DNA from: Candidatus Enterococcus ferrettii
GTDB lineage: Bacteria; Bacillota; Bacilli; Lactobacillales; Enterococcaceae
Direction of reading: 5' to 3'
DNA length: 64,000 nucleotides
NCBI RefSeq assembly: GCF_017377655.1
Contig: NZ_JAFREL010000083.1
Coordinates: forward strand, 1 to 64,000
The position numbers were made by a program, and so were the translations under genes. The notes under the pieces were generated by a model. The model was not told the DNA's origin, searched no databases, and was given only the letters and a program-made list of their open reading frames with translations. Below, piece by piece: positions 6,589 to 48,456 of this stretch (positions are counted from its first letter, which is position 1; each line of letters starts with the position of its first letter).

Positions 6589-6596
6589 TTAAATAG

Positions 6597-6849
6597 TATG
6601 TGATGAAAAGAAGAGTATAAAAGAACTAGGTTTTACAGAAAGCTTCGGTAGCTGAAAAGAAGTATTCCTGATCTTTTAGAAGATGGTCTTGGAGCATAAA
6701 ATGATGAATAGAGTAATCATTTGCGGGTCGGCCCGGTACAGCTTTTCAACAGTCCGCTGTTGAGTGAGATTGATCCTAGATCAATAAACAAAGGTGGTAC
6801 CACGGAAAACTTCCGTCCTTTCCTATTACAGGAGGACGGAAGTTTTTTT
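6597..6849 (+). promoter_or_regulatory. T-box riboswitch, probably tRNA-Met specific, controlling metY-metA
   Basis: This fills the 444-base gap between thrB and metY. The T-box sequence AAGGTGGTACCACGG is at 6791-6805. Immediately downstream a perfect 13-bp stem (6807-6819 with 6833-6845) runs into T7, forming the terminator that the antiterminator competes with. Upstream is a long Stem I region; ATG appears twice (6701-6706) on its 3' strand, near where the specifier codon is expected. Met-specific T-boxes are known in Lactobacillales in place of S-boxes. The family call is firm. The exact specifier is inferred from position and downstream genes. Confidence 0.93.
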
Positions 6850-7032
6850 GCTAGTCTGCTTTTTGCAGTTTGTTATTGTGAGAGAGTTAGATTTAAAGGG
6901 GTTGCTCAAATTCAAAATTAAGAAGACTAGTTGGATTGTACACAATAGGGATAAAAGATTTTTGATAAGAAAATGTTGAACAGAAGAACAAACAGATCGA
7001 ACAACCAATCACAATCAAAGGAGGAAATGAAT

Positions 7033-8304
7033 ATGGAATTCGAAACAAAATGTCTGCATGCGGGGTACACGCCAGGAAATGGAGAACCTCGGGTATTACC
7101 TATTACTCAAAGCACTACGTACACTTATGATTCAACAGAGGAAATTGGAAAACTATTTGATTTGAAGGAAAGTGGTTATTTTTATACTCGATTGGCAAAT
7201 CCAACGACGGGGGCGGTAGAGGAAAAGCTAGCTGCACTGGAAAATGGCGTAGGAGCATTATGCACTGCTTCTGGTCAGGCGGCGACTTTCTATGCTATCT
7301 TGAATATTTTAGAAGCAGGGGATCATTTTATCTCTTCTTCTTATATTTATGGGGGTACGTACAATTTATTTGCCCATACCTTACGGAAAATGGGAATTGA
7401 AGTGACTTTTGTAGATCAAAATGCTTCTTTAGAAGAATTGAAGCAAGCAGCAAAATCAAATACCAAAGCGGTTTTTGCTGAAACAATTGCTAACCCAGCC
7501 TTATGTGTATTAGACATCGAAAAATTCGCACAGTTAGCGCAAGCTTTGGACGTACCGTTTTTAATTGATAATACTTTTGCGACTCCTTATTATTGCAGAC
7601 CAATTGAATTTGGAGCAGATATTGTTATTCATAGTACAACTAAATACTTGGATGGTCATGCGGTTCAAACCGGCGGAGTTATCATTGACGGTGGGAAATT
7701 TAACTGGAATAATGGTAAATTCCCACAATTGTCTGAACCAGATGACACTTATCACGGGATTGTCTATACTGAAACCTTTGGTGCTGCAGCATATATTACT
7801 AAAGCTAGGGTTCAACTAATGCGCGATTTAGGAGCAACCCCTTCTCCGCAAAATTCTTTCTTACTGAATTTGGGAATCGAAACTTTAGCAGTAAGAATGG
7901 AACGTCATTATCAAAATGCTATGGCTGTTGCAGAGTTTCTAACTAAACAACCTGCAGTCAAAAAAATAAAGTATCCTGGTTTAAAGCAAGATGAAAATTA
8001 TGATTTAGCACAAAAATATGTTCCAAATGGATTATGCGGTGTGATTTCCTTTGAAATTGGAGCAGGCAAAGAAGAAGCAGCGAAATGGTTGGATGCTTTG
8101 CAATTGGTTTCGTTGGAAGTTCATGTAGCAGATATTCGAACATGCGCACTGCATCCAGCAACATCTACCCATCGTCAGCTAACCGATGAAGAATTAACGC
8201 AGGCGGGAATTTCACCAGGTTTGGTGCGCTTATCATGCGGAATTGAGAATGTATCAGATATTCTAGCAGACTTGCAGCAAGCTTTTGAACAACTGGAGGG
8301 ATAG
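7033..8304 (+). CDS. metY: O-acetylhomoserine sulfhydrylase (PLP, Cys/Met metabolism family)
   Basis: Makes homocysteine directly from O-acetylhomoserine and sulfide. The Cys/Met PLP signature DIVIHSTTKYLDGH contains the PLP-lysine. The N-terminus (FETKCLHAGYTPG) and 423 aa length fit MetY rather than the shorter MetB/MetC. An in-frame upstream start at 6973 and an ATG at 7027 exist, but AAAGGAGG at 7017-7024 is 8 bases from the ATG at 7033, which is chosen. It lies behind the Met T-box and 2 bases before metA, consistent with methionine-repressed direct sulfhydrylation. Confidence 0.93.
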   Translation: MEFETKCLHAGYTPGNGEPRVLPITQSTTYTYDSTEEIGKLFDLKESGYFYTRLANPTTGAVEEKLAALENGVGALCTASGQAATFYAILNILEAGDHFISSSYIYGGTYNLFAHTLRKMGIEVTFVDQNASLEELKQAAKSNTKAVFAETIANPALCVLDIEKFAQLAQALDVPFLIDNTFATPYYCRPIEFGADIVIHSTTKYLDGHAVQTGGVIIDGGKFNWNNGKFPQLSEPDDTYHGIVYTETFGAAAYITKARVQLMRDLGATPSPQNSFLLNLGIETLAVRMERHYQNAMAVAEFLTKQPAVKKIKYPGLKQDENYDLAQKYVPNGLCGVISFEIGAGKEEAAKWLDALQLVSLEVHVADIRTCALHPATSTHRQLTDEELTQAGISPGLVRLSCGIENVSDILADLQQAFEQLEG

Positions 8305-23233: not shown

Positions 23234-23335
23234 TAGATCTTTGACTGGTAAAAACTTTAATAGAGTCAAAATCTCCTTTTTCAGATTCTTTCTTGAAAAA
23301 ATCCCTGGTTTGTTTAACAAATTTTCCAGCTTTCC

Positions 23336-23364
23336 TTGACCTTTAATGATAAAATGATTAATAT
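23336..23364 (+). promoter_or_regulatory. Probable sigma-A promoter of the his operon
   Basis: TTGACC at 23336-23341, a 17-base spacer and TAATAT at 23359-23364. The leader to the first gene is only about 50 bases, with no T-box or attenuator, so control is probably at initiation. Confidence 0.65.
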
Positions 23365-23415
23365 ACTTTAAACATAAACTTATGAGAATTTCATTTTGGA
23401 AAAGGAGTGGTATAG

Positions 23416-24972
23416 ATGAAGGAACTTTGGGATGTGCTACGCCCAGAAGAACAGATCGAATTACAAATAAGAAGGTTGTATCAAGAGCATCATTTTCATC
23501 TATACCAATTAAACAGCTTTGAGGAATTTGAAGGCTATCAGCAACAGCGGAATTTTTTTAAAGATAGTACGATTATTACCTTTACCGGAAATGATGGCCG
23601 AACGATGGCTTTGAAGCCGGATGTAACGATTTCGATTGTAAAAAATACACCCTCAGGGGAGCGTCGTAAGGTTTATTACGTAGAAGATGTTTATCGTCAA
23701 GATCGTCAAGAGGGGGAATATCAAAAGATTCGCCAAGTGGGAATTGAGATTATTGACAACATCGGACAAAAAGATGAACTTGAGGTTCTGCGTTTGGCTT
23801 GGCAGAGTCTAGCTTTAGTAGGTGAAGGAACCTTAGACCTTTCTCACATGGGGATAATCAATGCAATTTGCGAACAATTCCCTCAAGAGGAACGTGATCA
23901 GGTTCTGAAAGCTTTACAGCATAAAAGCTCGCATGCCATGGATGAATTGACTCAGAAATACAATTTGCCAAAAGAAGAAAGTGAGAACTTAGGAAAATTA
24001 CTGCGACTTTCTGGTAAATTTGAGCAGTTTTACGAAAAAGCACGTGGGTTGCTATCTACATTGCCTAAAGCTCAGGCTGCCCTAGATGAGTTGAAGGAAT
24101 TACACGATCAGTTGACAAGTGACCCTGAGTTGTCTTCGTTGATTCGTTTGCGACTAGACTTTTCAATTATGAACGATGCGGATTATTACAGCGGATTATT
24201 GTTCCAAGGATTTATTAAGGAATCAAAGGAAACCATTCTTCATGGCGGACGTTATGACCTCCTGCTAAAACGCCAGGGAAAAAGTCAAGGTGCGATTGGG
24301 TTTGGTATGAAGCTGAATCATGTGGGTGAAAAAAAAGCACCGAAGGACTCCGAGTATTTAAACATCGCCTTACCAAAAGGACGGATGGGAGATACGGTCT
24401 ATCAATTATTTACCAAAGCCGGAATTGCCAGCGAGGGAGTTTTCGAAGACAATCGCAAGCTGATTTTTGTTGATGAAACAAATAAATTGCGCTTTTTCTT
24501 AGTAAAACCTAGTGATGTAGCGATCTATGTGGAGCATGGTGCCGCTGATATAGGGGTCGTTGGCAAAGATATATTGCTGGAGAATTACGCACATGTTATT
24601 GAGTTTTTAGATCTACACCTAGGAGAATGTCGAATTGCAGTGGCGGCCTGCAATGATTTCGTAGAGGATGAAAGCCGACCGTTGCGAGTTTCAACGAAGT
24701 ACTCCAACATTACACGAGATTATTATGACAGCTTAGGTCGTTCGATTGAGTTGATTGGATTGCATGGTTCGATTGAATTAGCGCCATTATTAGATTTATC
24801 AGACGTAATTGTCGATATCGTGGAAACAGGTACTACTTTGAAGGAGAACAATTTAAAGGTGATTCAGGACATCGCACCCTCTTCTGCACGGTTAATTATT
24901 AACCACGCTACTTGGCGTTTTAAGCAAGCACGCATTCAGGAGGTTATTGAGAAAGTGAGGCAGGAAATTTGA
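23416..24972 (+). CDS. hisZG: HisZ-HisG fusion: ATP phosphoribosyltransferase with fused regulatory subunit
   Basis: First step of histidine synthesis (ATP + PRPP to PR-ATP). Residues 1 to about 310 are HisZ, the HisRS-like regulatory subunit: class II motifs at 61-71 (GRTMALKPDVT), 88-97 (YVEDVYRQDR) and 292-300 (GAIGFGMKL). From about 314, LNIALPKGRMGD opens a full short-form HisG of about 205 aa, with the PRPP-binding segment VDIVETGTTLKENNL starting at residue 466. The linker is about ten residues. In most Bacillota these are two adjacent genes of a hetero-octamer. Here one frame encodes both, with no internal ribosome site seen. ATG follows AAAGGAG. It overlaps hisD by 4 bases. Confidence 0.93.
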   Translation: MKELWDVLRPEEQIELQIRRLYQEHHFHLYQLNSFEEFEGYQQQRNFFKDSTIITFTGNDGRTMALKPDVTISIVKNTPSGERRKVYYVEDVYRQDRQEGEYQKIRQVGIEIIDNIGQKDELEVLRLAWQSLALVGEGTLDLSHMGIINAICEQFPQEERDQVLKALQHKSSHAMDELTQKYNLPKEESENLGKLLRLSGKFEQFYEKARGLLSTLPKAQAALDELKELHDQLTSDPELSSLIRLRLDFSIMNDADYYSGLLFQGFIKESKETILHGGRYDLLLKRQGKSQGAIGFGMKLNHVGEKKAPKDSEYLNIALPKGRMGDTVYQLFTKAGIASEGVFEDNRKLIFVDETNKLRFFLVKPSDVAIYVEHGAADIGVVGKDILLENYAHVIEFLDLHLGECRIAVAACNDFVEDESRPLRVSTKYSNITRDYYDSLGRSIELIGLHGSIELAPLLDLSDVIVDIVETGTTLKENNLKVIQDIAPSSARLIINHATWRFKQARIQEVIEKVRQEI

Positions 24973-26252
24973 GAATCTTTTCAACTGTAAAACAAACGCA
25001 GGAAGAAATTTTGGCGCGAAAAATGTCTGAATCCGTCGATGTTTCGACTACTGTATCTGAAATAGTAACGAAGGTTAAAACTGGCGGAGATCAGGCGATA
25101 AAACAACTGACAAAAGAAATCGATGGTGTTGAACTCGCTGATTTGCGGGTAGCGGCTGCGGATATTGAAGCTAGTGTGAATGAGATTTCTAGTGAGTTGC
25201 TCGCTGTTTTGAAAAAAGCCAAAGAAAATATTACGGCTTATCACGAAAAGCAGGTTCGCCAAGGATTTGTCTCAACCTCGGAACAAGGAATTGTCATGGG
25301 ACAACGTGTATTACCCTTAGAAACGGTGGGTGTTTATGTGCCCGGCGGAACAGCAGCGTATCCCAGTACAGTATTAATGGATGTATTGCCAGCTAAAATT
25401 GCTGGGGTGAAGCGAATCGTTATGATCACTCCTCCAAGCAAAGAAGGGAAATTAGCACCAGCTATTCTCGCAGCTGCACACGTTGCTGGTGTGGATGAAA
25501 TTTATCAAGTCGGTGGAGCGCAAGGTGTGGCTGCACTAGCCTATGGAACGGAAACGATTCCGGCAGTCGACAAAATTGTTGGACCGGGAAATATTTATGT
25601 TGCAACAGCGAAACGTATGGTTTACGGCTTGGTTGATATTGATATGATCGCAGGTCCAAGTGATGTCTTGATTGTGGCGGATGACAGTGCCAATCCTGAA
25701 TGGTTAGCCGCGGATTTAATTGCTCAGGCCGAACATGATCCCTTGGCGCAGGCCATTTTGATTACAACCTCAGAGTCAATGATACAAGCAGTGGATCAAG
25801 CAGTACAACAGCAATTAGTTGACCTGCCAAGACAAGCAATTGCTCAGCAATCATTGGACAACAATGGGAAACTGATTTTAACTCGGGATTTAGACGAGGC
25901 CATTTCTTTAGCAAATCAGGTGGCACCAGAACATTTGGAGTTAGCAGTTGATCAACCTTTTGGACTATTAGGAAAAGTAAGAAATGCCGGCAGTGTCTTT
26001 TTAGGCCATTACACGCCTGAGGTTTTAGGAGATTATTTTGCTGGACCGAACCATACTTTGCCAACGGAAGGAACCGCTCGTTTTTATTCCCCTTTGTCGG
26101 TAGACGATTATGTGAAGAAAAGCAGCTATCTTTACTATACGCCAGAAGCATTGGCAGAGGCAGGCCCTTCCGTTGAATTATTTGCTAAAACGGAACACTT
26201 AGATGGCCATGCCCGTTCAATGGCGATTCGATTAAAGGGGGAAAAGGAATGA
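24969..26252 (+). CDS. hisD: Histidinol dehydrogenase
   Basis: Zinc- and NAD-dependent enzyme for the last two oxidations, histidinol to histidine. Family signature IAGPSDVLIVAD and the metal/catalytic region QAEHDPLAQA and VAPEHLEL. Length of 427 aa is normal. The start is a TTG overlapping the hisZG stop (TTGA), so translation is coupled. Confidence 0.96.
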   Translation: MRIFSTVKQTQEEILARKMSESVDVSTTVSEIVTKVKTGGDQAIKQLTKEIDGVELADLRVAAADIEASVNEISSELLAVLKKAKENITAYHEKQVRQGFVSTSEQGIVMGQRVLPLETVGVYVPGGTAAYPSTVLMDVLPAKIAGVKRIVMITPPSKEGKLAPAILAAAHVAGVDEIYQVGGAQGVAALAYGTETIPAVDKIVGPGNIYVATAKRMVYGLVDIDMIAGPSDVLIVADDSANPEWLAADLIAQAEHDPLAQAILITTSESMIQAVDQAVQQQLVDLPRQAIAQQSLDNNGKLILTRDLDEAISLANQVAPEHLELAVDQPFGLLGKVRNAGSVFLGHYTPEVLGDYFAGPNHTLPTEGTARFYSPLSVDDYVKKSSYLYYTPEALAEAGPSVELFAKTEHLDGHARSMAIRLKGEKE

Positions 26253-27304
26253 ATTTCTTACATTCAAAATATGCTCATTTAGTTCCTTATACACCTGGGG
26301 AGCAACCAAAAGAATCTGACTTTATTAAGCTGAATACGAATGAAAGTCCTTATGAGCCAGCACCATCAGTTATGGAGGCAGTTAAAGCAGCAGCTCATAC
26401 GTTAAACCGATACTCCGATACTGCTGCAAGAATTGTAGTTGACCCCTTAGCAAAGCAATTAGGAGTCAAAGCGGACCAAGTTATTTTAGGGAACGGCAGC
26501 GATGAAATTTTATCCTTTATTTTCCAAGCATTCACCGAAAAAGGGATGTCTTTTCCAGATGTAACCTATGGTTTTTATGCAATCTATTGTGATATGTATC
26601 AAGCGCAGGCCAATGTGGTACCTTTGATGGAAGATTTTACCTTAGATTTATCGGCTTATGATGCATTGGCGGGAACTGTAATTATTGCTAATCCCAATGC
26701 ACCAACGGGTTTGCTGCTTTCCTGTGAGGAAATATGCGACTTCTTGAAACGACATCCAGATCGTTTGCTGGTAGTGGATGAAGCGTATATTGATTTCGGC
26801 GGTCAATCAATGATTGCCCACATAGAAGAGTTTGATAATCTGTTGGTGGTAGGTACCTTTTCGAAATCACGTCAGTTGGCGGGAGCACGTTTAGGTTATG
26901 CTGTAGGGAACAGTCAATTAATTGGGAATCTGAATCAGATCAAATACAGTGTGAATCCCTACAATATCAATGCAATGACCCAGGCCGCGGGGGCTGCAGT
27001 GTTAGCCGAGCAGGATTATGTGGACCAATGTATCAAGAAGACGATTGAAGTAAGAAACTGGAGTACACAGGAATTGAAAAAACGAGGCTTTGAAATGACA
27101 GACAGCTATTGCAATTTCCTGTTTGCTAAACATTCTGAATTTGCTGGCGAAACGTTATTTGAGGCGTTGCGAGAACAAAAAATCTTAGTCCGCTGGTTTA
27201 ATCAACCGCGTACAAAGGACTATTTACGTATTTCAATTGGAACCAAAGAACAAATGGAACGCTTGATGGATGCCGTGGATCGAATTTTGGAAGGAGCCAA
27301 CTAA
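26249..27304 (+). CDS. hisC: Histidinol-phosphate aminotransferase
   Basis: PLP class II aminotransferase converting imidazole-acetol phosphate to histidinol phosphate. PLP-lysine in VGTFSKSRQLAGARLGY, with NPNAPTG and VVDEAYIDF upstream. 351 aa. It overlaps hisD by ATGA and hisB by one base (TAATG). Confidence 0.96.
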   Translation: MNFLHSKYAHLVPYTPGEQPKESDFIKLNTNESPYEPAPSVMEAVKAAAHTLNRYSDTAARIVVDPLAKQLGVKADQVILGNGSDEILSFIFQAFTEKGMSFPDVTYGFYAIYCDMYQAQANVVPLMEDFTLDLSAYDALAGTVIIANPNAPTGLLLSCEEICDFLKRHPDRLLVVDEAYIDFGGQSMIAHIEEFDNLLVVGTFSKSRQLAGARLGYAVGNSQLIGNLNQIKYSVNPYNINAMTQAAGAAVLAEQDYVDQCIKKTIEVRNWSTQELKKRGFEMTDSYCNFLFAKHSEFAGETLFEALREQKILVRWFNQPRTKDYLRISIGTKEQMERLMDAVDRILEGAN

Positions 27305-27897
27305 TGAGAAAAGCAGAAGTGACGCGCAATACCTCGGAAACGAAGATTCAACTCCAATTAGCTGTGGACGGGACTGGCCAACAAAATATTAAAACAGGTA
27401 TTGGTTTTCTGGACCACATGCTGGAATTGTTTACTCGTCATGGCCGTTTTGATTTAGAGCTGGTCTGTGACAGCGATATCGAAGTGGATGGCCATCATAC
27501 AACGGAGGATGTAGGGATTGCGATTGGTCGTGCCTTTTCTGAAGCTTTGGGCGAACGTCGCGGAATTAAGCGCTATGGCAGTATGATGCTTCCGATGGAT
27601 GAAGCCTTGGTGATGACTGCTTTAGATATCAGCGGACGTGGAATGGCCGTCGTTGAGCTGGATATTCCTACCGAAAAAATTGGGCAACAGTTTGATACGG
27701 AGCTAGTTGAGGAGTTCTTCATTGCTTTTGCTCGTGAATTAGGAGCAACCATTCACTTACATCAAATTGCTGGCAAAAATAGTCATCATATTGTTGAAGC
27801 CTGCTTTAAAGGATTTGGTCGAGCATTAGGCGAAGCAGTCACCATCAATCAGGCGGCGCCAGATGAAATTCCTTCAACTAAAGGAACGATTATCTAG
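27304..27897 (+). CDS. hisB: Imidazoleglycerol-phosphate dehydratase
   Basis: Manganese-dependent dehydratase, the single-function form (197 aa) without the phosphatase domain of enterobacterial HisB. Metal-binding repeats HHTTEDVGIA and HHIVEACFK are both intact, as is GIGFLDHMLE. The separate PHP phosphatase at the end of the operon supplies the missing activity. Confidence 0.97.
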   Translation: MRKAEVTRNTSETKIQLQLAVDGTGQQNIKTGIGFLDHMLELFTRHGRFDLELVCDSDIEVDGHHTTEDVGIAIGRAFSEALGERRGIKRYGSMMLPMDEALVMTALDISGRGMAVVELDIPTEKIGQQFDTELVEEFFIAFARELGATIHLHQIAGKNSHHIVEACFKGFGRALGEAVTINQAAPDEIPSTKGTII

Positions 27898-27911: not shown

Positions 27912-28538
27912 ATGATAGCGATTATTGATTATGGTGTCGGCAATTTATTCAGTTTAACCCGCTCATTGGAATATATTGGCGAGAAGAGTATTGTAACAAG
28001 AGACTTAAGTATCCTAGAAGCGGCCGATCACATTATTCTACCTGGTGTTGGCGCCTTTGGGGATGCAATTGAAAAATTGGAGCAGCTGGAATTAGTTGCG
28101 CCAATTCAGCAATTAGCAGCCAGCGGAAAACACTTCTTAGGGATTTGTTTAGGGATGCAGCTGCTATTCGAAACGAGTGAAGAATTCGGCAATTATCGAG
28201 GGCTAGGGTTGATTCCTGGAAAGATTATTTCTATGACAGAGGCCTTTCAAAAACAGGGGATTGATTTGAAGGTACCGCAAATTGGCTGGAACCAATTGGA
28301 AATTTTGCAGGAGGATTGCCCGCTGATTCGCGCTATCCAACAAGGCGATTATGTTTATTATGTGCATAGCTTCTATGGAGCGGATTGCGAAGACTCATTG
28401 GTTGCAGTTAGCGATTATGGTGTCAAAATTCCCGGGATTGTCCAAAAGGAAAATGTCATGGGAACTCAGTTTCATCCAGAAAAAAGCGGCGATGTCGGAT
28501 TGAAGATTCTTAAAGCATTTGCGGAGGTGGGAAAATGA
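27912..28538 (+). CDS. hisH: Imidazole glycerol phosphate synthase, glutaminase subunit
   Basis: Class I glutamine amidotransferase that feeds ammonia to HisF. Nucleophile Cys in GICLGMQLLF, and catalytic His-Pro-Glu in GTQFHPEKSG. 208 aa. ATG follows AAAGGGAG. Its stop overlaps the hisA start by 4 bases. Confidence 0.97.
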   Translation: MIAIIDYGVGNLFSLTRSLEYIGEKSIVTRDLSILEAADHIILPGVGAFGDAIEKLEQLELVAPIQQLAASGKHFLGICLGMQLLFETSEEFGNYRGLGLIPGKIISMTEAFQKQGIDLKVPQIGWNQLEILQEDCPLIRAIQQGDYVYYVHSFYGADCEDSLVAVSDYGVKIPGIVQKENVMGTQFHPEKSGDVGLKILKAFAEVGK

Positions 28539-29254
28539 AAATCTTTCCAGCAATCGATTTATTAAATCAAAAGGTCGTTCGTTTGTATCAAGGAGACTAC
28601 GATCAGCAGGAAATCTTTGGTGATGATCCAGCAGCTTTTGCCAAGTCCTTTGAGGAGGCGGGAGCAAAATATCTGCATTTGGTCGATTTGGATGGTGCTA
28701 AGGCTGGGAAGCTGCACTATTTCGAAATTGCGAAGCAAATTGTTGAACAAACCAACTTGTTTGTCGAAGTTGGCGGTGGTATTCGCGATGAAGCAACGAT
28801 TCAACATTGTCTGGATGCTGGAGTAGATCGGGTAATTTTAGGAACAATTGCGCAAAAAGATCCTGAGTTTACACAAGCTATGCTGGCAAAGTATGGCGAG
28901 AAAATTGCCATTGGAGTAGATGCTAAAGAGGGAAAAGTAGCAGTAGAGGGCTGGTTGGAGAAAACCGAAACTGATGCTTTTGAATTCTGTCAGCAGCTGC
29001 AAAGCTGGGGAGCAAAGACCATTATTTTCACGGAGATTTCCCGGGATGGGACAGGTCAAGGAATTAATATTCCTTTGTACCAGAAACTGAATGAATTAGA
29101 TTTGGAAATTGTGGCTTCTGGCGGAGTGGCCAGTTTAGCGGATATTGAACAATTAAAGGCGATTCAGATTGGTGGAGCAATTGTCGGCAAATCCCTTTAT
29201 AATGGCAGCTTGAAGCTAGAGGATGTCTTGGCAGCCGGCAAGGAGGAGAACTAA
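28535..29254 (+). CDS. hisA: ProFAR isomerase
   Basis: TIM-barrel Amadori isomerase of the pathway. N-terminal catalytic Asp in FPAIDLLNQKVVRL, phosphate-binding VEVGGGIRD, and later EISRDGTG and ASGGVASLADI. 239 aa. It overlaps both neighbours (ATGA with hisH, TAATG with hisF). Confidence 0.97.
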   Translation: MKIFPAIDLLNQKVVRLYQGDYDQQEIFGDDPAAFAKSFEEAGAKYLHLVDLDGAKAGKLHYFEIAKQIVEQTNLFVEVGGGIRDEATIQHCLDAGVDRVILGTIAQKDPEFTQAMLAKYGEKIAIGVDAKEGKVAVEGWLEKTETDAFEFCQQLQSWGAKTIIFTEISRDGTGQGINIPLYQKLNELDLEIVASGGVASLADIEQLKAIQIGGAIVGKSLYNGSLKLEDVLAAGKEEN

Positions 29255-30012
29255 TGCTCGCAAAACGAATTATTCCTTGTTTGGATGTCCGGGATGGCCG
29301 AGTAGTCAAGGGGGTAAACTTTGCTGGGCTGAAGGATGTGAATGATCCAGTTACTTTGGCGCGTTTTTACAATGAGCAGGGAGCGGATGAATTAGTTTTC
29401 TACGATATTACAGCTTCAGCTGAAGATCGTGAGCTGTTTACTGATATTTTAGAGGCTGTTGCCTCGGAGGTATTTATTCCTTTGACTGTGGGCGGCGGAA
29501 TTAATGAAGTAGCTGATTTTGAACGGGTATTAAATTGTGGTGCCGATAAAGTCAGTGTTAATTCCGGGGCTTTGCGAAATCCTCAACTGATTGAGGATGG
29601 GGCCAAGCGTTACGGCAGTCAATGTGTGGTTCTTTCGGTTGATATTCGAAAGGTAGGCGATCAGTGGCGGGTTTTTGCTAAAGGTGGTCGCGAAGATACT
29701 GGTATGGACGCGTTAGAATGGATCAAAAAAGGCGAAGCATTAGGTGCCGGCGAGCTGGTAATTAACAGCATGGATACGGATGGCGTGAAGCAGGGATTTG
29801 ATTTACCTTTGTTAACAGCGGTTAGTGAAATCAGCTCATTACCGATTGTTGCCTCTGGAGGAGCCGGAAACAGTGAAGATTTTTATCGCTTGTTCCAGCT
29901 GCCCAATATTGAAGCAGGCTTAGCAGCTTCTATTTTTCATTATGGCGAAGTAAAAATTCCTGATTTAAAGCGTCAATTAACAGAAAAAGCAATTCCAATG
30001 CGAATTGTTTAG
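29254..30012 (+). CDS. hisF: Imidazole glycerol phosphate synthase, cyclase subunit
   Basis: TIM-barrel cyclase paired with HisH. N-terminal Asp in RIIPCLDVRDGRVVKG, the phosphate sites PLTVGGGI and VASGGAGN, and second catalytic Asp in NSMDTDGVKQGFD. 252 aa. Confidence 0.97.
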   Translation: MLAKRIIPCLDVRDGRVVKGVNFAGLKDVNDPVTLARFYNEQGADELVFYDITASAEDRELFTDILEAVASEVFIPLTVGGGINEVADFERVLNCGADKVSVNSGALRNPQLIEDGAKRYGSQCVVLSVDIRKVGDQWRVFAKGGREDTGMDALEWIKKGEALGAGELVINSMDTDGVKQGFDLPLLTAVSEISSLPIVASGGAGNSEDFYRLFQLPNIEAGLAASIFHYGEVKIPDLKRQLTEKAIPMRIV

Positions 30013-30024
30013 AGGAGGAAGCAG

Positions 30025-30660
30025 ATGGAACTGAAATTTGATGAACAAGGCTTAATCCCAGTTATTGTACAGGATGCCCAAACCAATCAAGTCTTGACCT
30101 TGGCTTATATGAATCAAGAAAGTTTAACCCTAACGTTGAAGGATCGTTTAATGACCTTTTATTCCCGCAGCCGTCAAGAGTTATGGCGCAAAGGAGAAAC
30201 TAGCGGGAACTACCAGCATTTAGTCTCTTTAACCGCTGATTGCGACCAAGATGCCTTAGTTGCTAAGGTGACCAAGGATGGGCCGGCCTGCCATACTGGT
30301 TCAGAAAGCTGCTTTACTGAACAGCTTTTTGGTGAGCAGGAGCAGGAGAAAGTTCAACTAACTGATCTTTATCAATTAATTAAAGAGCGCAAAACGTCTC
30401 CTAAGGAAGGTAGTTATACCAGCTACCTGTTCGATAAGGGGTTAGAAAAGATTTTAAAAAAAATTGGTGAGGAATCTACCGAAGTTGTTATTGGAGCAAT
30501 GAAGGCAGATCGTCAGGAAACTGTTTTTGAAGCAGCGGATTTAACTTATCATATGCTAGTGCTTTTAGTGGAAATGGGCATCACGGTAGAAGAGGTTCAG
30601 CAGGAATTAGCCAAACGGCATGTCGTTGATCATAAGGTGAAGCAAGAAACGTTAAAATAG
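30025..30660 (+). CDS. hisIE: Bifunctional phosphoribosyl-AMP cyclohydrolase / phosphoribosyl-ATP pyrophosphatase
   Basis: Fused HisI (about 1-110) and HisE (about 115-211) catalysing steps two and three. HisI shows FYSRSRQELWRKGETSGN and a zinc cysteine pair around CDQDALV and CHTGSESC. HisE shows KIGEESTEVVIGAMK and the ADLTYHMLVLL helix. ATG follows AGAGGAGGAAG, 12 bases after hisF. Confidence 0.96.
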   Translation: MELKFDEQGLIPVIVQDAQTNQVLTLAYMNQESLTLTLKDRLMTFYSRSRQELWRKGETSGNYQHLVSLTADCDQDALVAKVTKDGPACHTGSESCFTEQLFGEQEQEKVQLTDLYQLIKERKTSPKEGSYTSYLFDKGLEKILKKIGEESTEVVIGAMKADRQETVFEAADLTYHMLVLLVEMGITVEEVQQELAKRHVVDHKVKQETLK

Positions 30661-30671
30661 GGGGAAGTTTC

Positions 30672-31496
30672 ATGTTCTATTCAAACGCACATACCCACAG
30701 CACCTGGTGTGATGGTAAGGATACTATGCAATCGATGGCTGAGGCAGCTATTCAATTAGGTTTTACTGACTTAGGTTTTACCAGCCATTCTTCAGCACCC
30801 TTTGATCCTTCTTGCCCTGGCGTTGCTGATGAAGCAGGGTACCAAAAAGAGGCCCATGGGCTACAGGAGCAATTCAAGGATTATTTGACGATTCGTGTAG
30901 GGTTGGAATGGGACTACTATAGTCCAGATCCACAGATTGGCTATGACTATTTTGTAGGATCGGTGCATTATTTACCACCAAGAAATGGCATCTATCGTTC
31001 GGTTGATGAAAGTCCGGAAACGCTGATGGAAACTTTGCGGGACTGGTATGGCGGCGACAAGCTGTTAATGATTCAGGACTACTACGACACCGTAGTGAGC
31101 CATATTCAACAGCATCAGCCAAAAATCGTCGGGCATTTTGATCTGATTACAAAGTTTAATGGGAAGGCCCCTTGGTTTGATGATACCAGCAGCGCATACC
31201 AGAAGATTGCTTTAAAGGCATTAGATGACGTAATTGATTTGGTTCAATCCTATGACGGTTTGGTAGAAGTGAATACTGGAGCTATTTCTCGTAATTGGCG
31301 AACACAGCCCTATCCGGATTGTTTCTTGCTGCAGCAGCTGCAGTTAAGAGAATGCCCGGTGATTGTCACTAGTGACAGTCATGAAACAAATACGTTAAAT
31401 TTTCATTTTAAAGAGACCGGTGAACTATTAAAGTCCTTAGGTTTTACCTCGACATTTCAATTAAAGGATGGCGAATTTCAAAAAATTTCGTTTTAA
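30672..31496 (+). CDS. hisK: Histidinol-phosphatase, PHP family
   Basis: Removes phosphate from histidinol phosphate. PHP-type metal ligands are visible: AHTHSTW at the N-terminus, GFTSHS, the GLEWDYY region, VGHFDLI and the C-terminal SDSHE. 274 aa, the HisJ/HisK type found in Bacillus and Lactococcus. Last gene of the his operon. Only 12 bases separate it from the glyQS promoter, and no terminator is seen between. Confidence 0.95.
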   Translation: MFYSNAHTHSTWCDGKDTMQSMAEAAIQLGFTDLGFTSHSSAPFDPSCPGVADEAGYQKEAHGLQEQFKDYLTIRVGLEWDYYSPDPQIGYDYFVGSVHYLPPRNGIYRSVDESPETLMETLRDWYGGDKLLMIQDYYDTVVSHIQQHQPKIVGHFDLITKFNGKAPWFDDTSSAYQKIALKALDDVIDLVQSYDGLVEVNTGAISRNWRTQPYPDCFLLQQLQLRECPVIVTSDSHETNTLNFHFKETGELLKSLGFTSTFQLKDGEFQKISF

Positions 31497-31539: not shown

Positions 31540-31745
31540 GTAGCAAGTTGAATAGGTGCGTTGAGCAAAAAAAGAAGTTCATCCCTCAGTGAAGCGAGTT
31601 CGGGTCAGTGGAAGCCGAATGTGATATGAATTTTCCCGGCGTTTGTGAGCACAGTAGTTGAAAGCTGCCAAGTTTTTTTGACTTGGAAGTAGGGTGGAAC
31701 CGCGTTAATACGTCCCTATGTCTATTGCAGACATAGGGCTTTTTC
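31540..31745 (+). promoter_or_regulatory. T-box riboswitch of glyQS (tRNA-Gly)
   Basis: T-box AGGGTGGAACCGCG at 31691-31704. A stem III-like hairpin CCAAG...CTTGG lies just before it. A terminator stem CCCTATGTCT / AGACATAGGG (31714-31723, 31729-31738) runs into T5. The compact leader fits the known short glyQS type. Glycine specificity is taken from the downstream genes; I could not fix the specifier codon with certainty. Confidence 0.94.
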
Positions 31746-48355: not shown

Positions 48356-48456
48356 TGCAGCGAATGCGAAAATAAAACCGCAGACCGAAGTCTTTCGTCC
48401 AGCAGGCAACATCCCATCCTTCCGGCACTTAACGCTTTATTCTCTACTCTGATTAT
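48356..48456 (-). promoter_or_regulatory. Tetrahydrofolate (THF) riboswitch upstream of folT
   Basis: Read on the minus strand, conserved THF-I elements occur in order: AGAGTAGA (48449-48442), GCGTTAAGTG (48435-48426), GATGGGATGTTGCC (48418-48405), GACGAAA (48399-48393) and GCGG before a GCATTCGCTGC end. A small hairpin GCTGC...GCAGC and the ribosome site follow, suggesting control of translation. This explains most of the 350-base gap between folT and the formate/nitrite gene. Confidence 0.88.

What the first reader, a model, noticed from the sequence alone, without database searches (positions are those of the whole stretch)
23416..24972. HisZ and HisG fused in a single 518-residue protein
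The first gene of the his operon reads through from a complete HisRS-like HisZ (three class II motifs) into a complete short-form HisG with an intact PRPP site, joined by about ten residues. The usual state in Bacillota and others is two proteins forming a 4+4 hetero-octamer with HisZ as the histidine sensor. A covalent 1:1 fusion would fix the stoichiometry and may change allostery. I do not know of a characterised example.
Basis: partly seen in the sequence, partly recalled or inferred. Interest (0 to 1): 0.75.

Follow-up and report, generated by a model that had tools for sequence, protein, structure and literature searches.

The report
Fused HisZ-HisG histidine-pathway enzyme
The first enzyme of histidine synthesis and its histidine-sensing regulator are encoded here as one protein; this is real and looks functional, but such fusions are common in related bacteria and have been mentioned in print, although they seem to have arisen many times in a similar way.

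Summary
Window 23416-24972 is one 518-residue frame: HisZ domain (1-302), 11-residue linker, short-form HisG (314-518), heading a complete his operon. It is no sequencing slip: 17 of 20 genomes of the genus (own included) carry it full length in one frame. The genome has no other HisG. Catalytic HisG residues and HisRS-like histidine-pocket residues of HisZ are invariant in 66 of 66 aligned fusions. It most likely works as a short-form ATP phosphoribosyltransferase made of four identical chains (inferred).

It is neither rare nor unmentioned: three searches list 357 proteins with both domains (Enterococcus, Leuconostoc, Fructobacillus, Clostridia), UniRef labels some 'Multifunctional fusion protein', and a 2022 paper names hisZ-hisG among his fusions. 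I found no characterised example or solved structure.

New here: the fused state is scattered on the tree (14 changes, 11 forced; single clade rejected), and 356 of 357 fusions lack the C-terminal HisZ extension that 63 of 77 separate HisZ have, so HisG sits in its place. The enterococcal fused operon has a different history from the split his operons of sister genera.

The parts
23336..23364 (+). promoter-like site TTGACC-17-TAATAT of the his operon
   Evidence: consensus scan (17 sites found in the region, 17.0 expected from shuffles, so weak by itself); the same place is similar in the 12 Enterococcus records aligned (TTG and ATTA.TAT kept)
23416..24321 (+). HisZ domain (residues 1-302), compact form without the C-terminal extension of most separate HisZ
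   Evidence: PF13393; aligned to 3od1_A, L. lactis 1z7m_A and E. coli HisRS 1htt_A (species names recalled or from papers); pocket residues invariant 66 of 66
24322..24354 (+). variable linker (residues 303-313), contains an A8 run at 24329-24336
   Evidence: alignment A1 junction; frame check
24355..24972 (+). short-form HisG domain (residues 314-518) and stop
   Evidence: PF01634 and TIGR00070; R323, R347, C405 invariant 66 of 66, matching Arg32, Arg56, Cys115 of P. arcticus HisGS by the alignment (PDB chain numbering is one higher)
24969..26252 (+). hisD, overlaps the end of the fusion gene by 4 bases
   Evidence: TIGR00069 552.3 bits, cut-off 243.8
26249..27304 (+). hisC
   Evidence: TIGR01141 above cut-off
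27304..27897 (+). hisB (dehydratase only)
   Evidence: NF002111 above cut-off
27912..28538 (+). hisH
   Evidence: TIGR01855 above cut-off
28535..29254 (+). hisA
   Evidence: TIGR00007 above cut-off
29254..30012 (+). hisF
   Evidence: TIGR00735 above cut-off
30025..30660 (+). hisIE (itself a bifunctional gene)
   Evidence: NF002747 above cut-off
30672..31496 (+). hisJ-type histidinol-phosphatase
   Evidence: TIGR01856 above cut-off
31714..31738 (+). terminator-like hairpin after the operon
   Evidence: pattern scan only (3 found in the region, 8.5 expected from shuffles)

Best explanation
It is a fused short-form ATP phosphoribosyltransferase: the HisG domain catalyses ATP + PRPP to PR-ATP, and the HisZ domain on the same chain activates it and passes on histidine feedback inhibition, as separate HisZ does. 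Because the fused HisZ has the compact size of L. lactis HisZ and HisG starts right after it, I infer that four 59-kDa chains assemble into the equivalent of the 4+4 octamer (HisZ tetramer core, HisG dimers at both ends). Shown: the single frame, both complete domains, conserved catalytic and pocket residues, no second HisG, complete operon. Inferred: activity, histidine inhibition, oligomer.
For: Both domains over Pfam cut-offs. Only HisG in the genome; the only other HisRS-like hit is a separate 470-codon frame, of hisS size. Full his operon around it, so the first step should come from this gene. Equivalents of HisG Arg32, Arg56 and Cys115 (roles from passages of PMC9734150) invariant in 66 of 66; HisZ D69, T71, R94, Q107, E111, Y257, Y258, G277, G278, Y280 invariant in 66 of 66, at positions aligned with E. 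coli HisRS (which of them contact histidine is recalled). Profile positions 3-311 cover L. lactis HisZ chain 31-340 of 344, and 316 aligns with residue 1 of its HisG. Mass 59.3 kDa. Hetero-octamer architecture from passages of PMC10795190.
Against: No structure could be predicted (job interrupted, then tool switched off), so whether the 11-residue linker can span from HisZ to HisG within the known octamer is untested. The HisZ half scores below the NCBIfam hisZ cut-off. In-frame ATG 15-19 codons before HisG in 25 of 38 fused loci, 12 of them with a 4-base Shine-Dalgarno-like match; 3 of 38 have a 5-base match (AAGGA) before a TTG or GTG at the second or third HisG residue, so some separate HisG is not excluded.
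Confidence: 0.82

Rival explanations
1. Sequencing or assembly slip joins two genes that are separate in the cell.
For: A8 run in the linker.
Against: 16 of the 19 other genomes of the genus and 16 named Enterococcus records (partly the same species) have the same uninterrupted frame; linker letters differ between relatives.
Confidence: 0.01
2. One gene, but two working proteins: internal initiation just before HisG, or cleavage of the linker, yields free HisG and an ordinary hetero-octamer.
For: In-frame ATG 15-19 codons before HisG in 25 of 38 fused loci, 12 with a 4-base Shine-Dalgarno-like match; AAGGA before TTG/GTG in 3 of 38.
Against: In the enterococci that ATG is the Met of the conserved GFGM of the HisZ core; 4 of 38 loci (L044, L045, L047, L079) have no start codon near the junction and most have no good ribosome site.
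Confidence: 0.08
3. The HisZ domain is kept only as scaffold and activator, and histidine feedback is lost or strongly altered by the fusion.
For: None direct; feedback has not been measured for any fusion that I met.
Against: Pocket residues invariant in 66 of 66 fusions.
Confidence: 0.09

Closest known systems
Short-form ATP phosphoribosyltransferase HisZ + HisGS (L. lactis 1z7m, T. maritima 1usy, P. arcticus 5m8h, A. baumannii 8oy0)
   Same: Same two domains, same catalytic residues, HisRS-like regulatory part; compact HisZ as in L. lactis and T. maritima, which lack the C-terminal domain (PMC10795190 passage).
   Different: One chain instead of two; 1:1 stoichiometry is fixed.
hisZ-hisG fusions named in PMC9413887 (BMC Genomics 2022) and UniRef 'Multifunctional fusion protein' entries (Leuconostoc holzapfelii, Fructobacillus cardui; the Anaerosacchariphilus label is cut off in the listing)
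   Same: Same domains in one chain, HisZ then HisG in the listed proteins.
   Different: No biochemistry in the passages seen; the Leuconostoc-type fusion and the enterococcal one are rejected as one clade (AU p 0.00019). The source that the paper cites (Fani 2007, PMC1963479) holds no 'hisZ' in its main text.
Long-form ATP phosphoribosyltransferase HisGL
   Same: Catalytic and regulatory parts in one chain.
   Different: There the regulatory part is a C-terminal domain and the enzyme a homohexamer (PMC10795190 introduction); here it is an N-terminal HisRS-like domain.

Membership tests
HisG (ATP phosphoribosyltransferase, short form) | HisG domain above curated cut-offs, without the long-form C-terminal domain | tested here: met
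   TIGR00070 187.3 vs 75.75; PF01634 168.7 vs 25.5; the chain ends about 205 residues after HisG starts
HisG (ATP phosphoribosyltransferase, short form) | equivalents of catalytic Arg32, Arg56, Cys115 (P. arcticus numbering) | tested here: met
   R323, R347, C405 in 66 of 66
HisZ (regulatory subunit) | HisRS-like core above the PF13393 cut-off | tested here: met
   162 bits vs 25
HisZ (regulatory subunit) | score above the NCBIfam TIGR00443 hisZ cut-off | tested here: not met
   179.2 vs 271.65 bits; still the best of the HisZ and HisRS models (next NF008941 116.8, hisS TIGR00442 102.3)
HisZ (regulatory subunit) | histidine-pocket residues kept, HisRS-specific arginine lost | tested here: met
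   identity of the contact residues recalled
Hetero-octameric short-form ATP-PRT | HisZ tetramer between two HisG dimers | not testable with these tools
   structure prediction unavailable
Histidyl-tRNA synthetase | HisRS catalytic arginine and anticodon-binding domain | tested here: not met
   Asn253 at the E. coli Arg259 position; HisG follows the core after a short linker

The most novel reading that the evidence does not exclude
HisZ-HisG fusion is a recurrent, convergent event, mostly in Bacillota, in which HisG takes the place of the C-terminal extension of HisZ: many lineages lost that extension and gained the same C-to-N joint. This predicts that the C-terminus of the HisZ core lies next to the HisG N-terminus in the octamer, and that the extension is dispensable once HisG is tethered. 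One fusion (P0127, 613 aa) still keeps the extension and could be an intermediate.
Probability: 0.55. Interest if true: 0.5.

Novelty: new member of a known kind. Interest (0 to 1): 0.38.

Why it matters
A natural single-chain short-form ATP-PRT removes the subunit-mixing step that complicates work on HisZ activation and histidine inhibition, and would give a one-gene enzyme for histidine production. Repeated fusions next to separate relatives make it testable whether the C-terminal extension of HisZ and subunit exchange matter for allostery. In itself this gene is an ordinary member of a widespread architecture for which I found no biochemistry.

Tried and rejected
Frameshift artefact: rejected. 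Fusions with full-length HisZ: 12 matches with 'open frames' of 600-650 aa looked like such fusions; fetched, 12 of 12 were two ORFs with an in-frame stop between them. Matches with stops inside (G224, G464, G541, G592, G429) are also split. T-box or other Rfam leader at this operon: none at gathering score in the window's 5' region or in 10 related loci, only weak hits below family cut-offs at E<=1, although PMC9413887 reports T-boxes before his operons of some enterococci. HisR operator (consensus cacTTTAnnnnnnTAAAgtg, passage): none seen by eye in the alignment; not searched formally. Structure model: job interrupted, then the tool was off; no fold search was run. Internal start for HisG: not excluded. 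One ancestral fusion with later fissions: not excluded by parsimony alone; disfavoured because separate HisZ of the same clade carry the extension that fusions lack (12 of 12 loci L070-L078, L080, L082, L083 have 65-68 residues after the core).

Limits. Tree rows were picked by me; 132 HisG rows = 96 loci of 134 (left out: L001-L018 as the window's own gene or the same genus sampled again, not checked one by one; 18 loci as near-duplicates by eye of the identities; L092 and L117) and 36 of the 119 relatives; 64 rows; 102 rows = 50 of the 357 fused proteins, 4 fused loci, 48 split loci; Lactobacillaceae-type L111-L118, whose HisZ phmmer missed, are not in it., 69 is a quick tree with one support measure; several rows have long branches or unusual composition, and one search's bootstrap had not settled. 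Separate HisZ count: 82 ORFs found; left out are L019, L038 and one L129 ORF (HisRS-like), L092 (short piece at a contig end) and L130 (remnant); of the remaining 77, 14 are compact (at most 10 residues after the core) and 63 have 47-112. Rows are not independent of each other, and the extension is judged by length, not by fold.

Full report
What is there. Window 23416-24972 is one open frame of 518 codons. Residues 11-302 match PF13393 and 364-515 match PF01634, both far above cut-off. NCBIfam calls the second half hisG over its cut-off and gives hisZ as the best name for the first half, but below that model's cut-off. The gene starts an operon hisZG-hisD-hisC-hisB-hisH-hisA-hisF-hisIE-hisJ. 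The genome (5.4 Mb, 157 contigs) has this one HisG and, apart from the fusion, one HisRS-like gene in a 470-codon frame. The nearest named record is Enterococcus pallens (96% identity).

Is the fusion real. Relatives answer it: 17 of 20 genomes of the genus, own included, have a full-length match with no stop inside (two of the others have no match, one a remnant). In the family it is 34 of 105; 28 of 105 have separate hisG and hisZ matches, 6 only remnants or weak HisZ/HisRS-like matches, 37 none. Stop-to-stop ORFs show one frame in 38 fused loci, L001-L018 not counted. The junction varies in letters and length between conserved flanks.

How it works. In 66 aligned fusions the residues aligned with Arg32, Arg56 and Cys115 of P. 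arcticus HisGS are invariant (roles from passages of PMC9734150). In the HisZ domain Asp69, Thr71, Arg94, Gln107, Glu111, Tyr257, Tyr258, Gly277, Gly278 and Tyr280 are invariant; they align with the pocket region of E. coli HisRS (contacts recalled), while the HisRS Arg259 position is Asn in 55 of 66 and Arg in none of the listed ones. So catalytic centre and histidine sensor look intact and synthetase activity lost. Characterised short-form enzymes are hetero-octamers, a HisZ tetramer between two HisG dimers, in which HisZ activates HisG and also passes on histidine inhibition (passages of PMC10795190 and PMC9734150). The simplest model is the same assembly from four fused chains. This is inference: no structure prediction could be had, and no PDB hit spans both domains.

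How common it is. Of the listed hits, 119 of 119 (own protein not counted), 120 of 120 (which includes the query's own record P0121) and 118 of 119 (P0155 already counted before) carry both domains in the order HisZ-HisG. The exception, P0254, is a lone 324-aa HisZ of Leuconostoc mesenteroides subsp. cremoris. Only the best 120 of 4961, 2204 and 1154 hits were listed, and the queries were themselves fusions, so these are not frequencies. Names include Enterococcus, Leuconostoc, Fructobacillus, Fructilactobacillus, Ruminococcaceae, Lachnospiraceae, Anaerovoracaceae, Clostridia and one Caldilineaceae MAG. UniRef labels some 'Multifunctional fusion protein', JGI 'regulatory subunit/ATP phosphoribosyltransferase'. 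In genomes searched with this protein, single-frame matches over both domains were listed in 12 of 246 genomes of the order and 3 of 398 of the phylum, own included; the match lists were cut and the query is nearly blind to distant fusions, so these are lower bounds.

In print. PMC9413887 says that 'hisZ-hisG' is among his genes that 'have undergone various single or multiple fusions' (passage), citing Fani 2007, whose held main text has no 'hisZ', and a 1995 paper that I did not see (reference list). Eight searches showed no characterised fusion in titles and abstract starts, nor did the passages I read in eight papers; the library holds open papers only.

Evolution. A tree of 132 HisG domains needs 9 changes between fused and split, 4 forced by well-supported branches. 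HisZ+HisG of 64 rows: 8 changes, all forced, and one fused clade is rejected (AU p 1e-84). HisZ+HisG of 102 rows: 14 changes, 11 forced, one clade rejected (p 2.8e-62); enterococcal and Leuconostoc fusions as one clade against the split rows rejected (p 0.00019). Separate HisZ usually continue 47-112 residues beyond the core (63 of 77; the other 14 end within 10), whereas 356 of 357 fusions have at most 47 residues between HisZ core and HisG, 344 of 357 at most 25, medians 12, 16 and 18 in the three sets. The two longest of these (P0110, P0111; 47 residues) have an Ala-rich linker unlike the extension. The exception, P0127 (613 aa, 78 residues), retains an extension-like stretch followed by a Met-starting HisG and sits with two compact fusions (P0126, P0130) next to split genes. 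In the window's own wider clade the 12 split loci all keep 65-68 residues. Since fission of a compact fusion would not bring the extension back, repeated fusion with loss of the extension is the more likely reading; but compact separate HisZ exist, so loss may also come first. That the extension is a folded domain is taken from PMC10795190 for other species, not shown here.

Horizontal relation. In the HisZ+HisG tree the enterococcal fusions share a well-supported clade (21 rows, 100/99) with Ruminococcaceae (P0035, P0037, P0061) and a Clostridiales MAG (P0079), while split genes of other genera of the same family group with other Lactobacillales (HisG alone agrees, with a 53-row fused clade at 100/99). 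HisD agrees in part: fused-operon HisD of nine family members and split-operon HisD of five are rejected as one clade (AU p 6e-48), the split ones lying with Lactobacillales; where the fused-operon HisD join is unresolved there. So the operon with the fusion has a different history from the split operons of sister genera; exchange between Clostridia and enterococci is likely, direction unknown.

Verdict. It is a member of a common architecture for which I found no biochemistry. The recurrent, similar way of fusing is the most interesting part and was not in the finding.

Noticed in passing
window 23330-23370 and the same place in L001-L005, L007-L010, L014-L016: Promoter region and spacer of the his operon are similar across 12 enterococcal records beyond a bare promoter (TTG..ATG..AAAA..ATTA.TAT), and no T-box is found there; an unknown operator may overlap the promoter.
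   Followed up: partly
window 23240-23330: Near-palindrome TTTGTTTAACAAA upstream of the -35 box, partly kept only in L001 and L002.
   Followed up: no
L130 (G053) and G018:C4:57613-57753: HisZ remnants without HisG (a 203-codon piece; a 66-codon piece with stops), perhaps decayed his operons.
   Followed up: no
P0127 (613 aa): A fusion that keeps the C-terminal stretch of HisZ and a Met at the HisG start, next to compact fusions in the tree: possible fusion intermediate, or a recent stop loss.
   Followed up: partly
P0107 (657 aa): Holds part of the HisZ half twice in tandem before HisG (sequence): a real internal duplication or an assembly error.
   Followed up: no
window 6594-6823: T-box leader (112 bits) upstream of a 443-aa gene at 6973-8304 that looks like a PLP-dependent sulfhydrylase (recalled, not tested).
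   Followed up: no
window 48356-48453 (-): THF riboswitch (85.9 bits).
   Followed up: no
PMC9413887 Table 1 (passage): The table as held seems to swap HisZ and HisG (HisZ as the transferase, HisG as the regulatory subunit).
   Followed up: no
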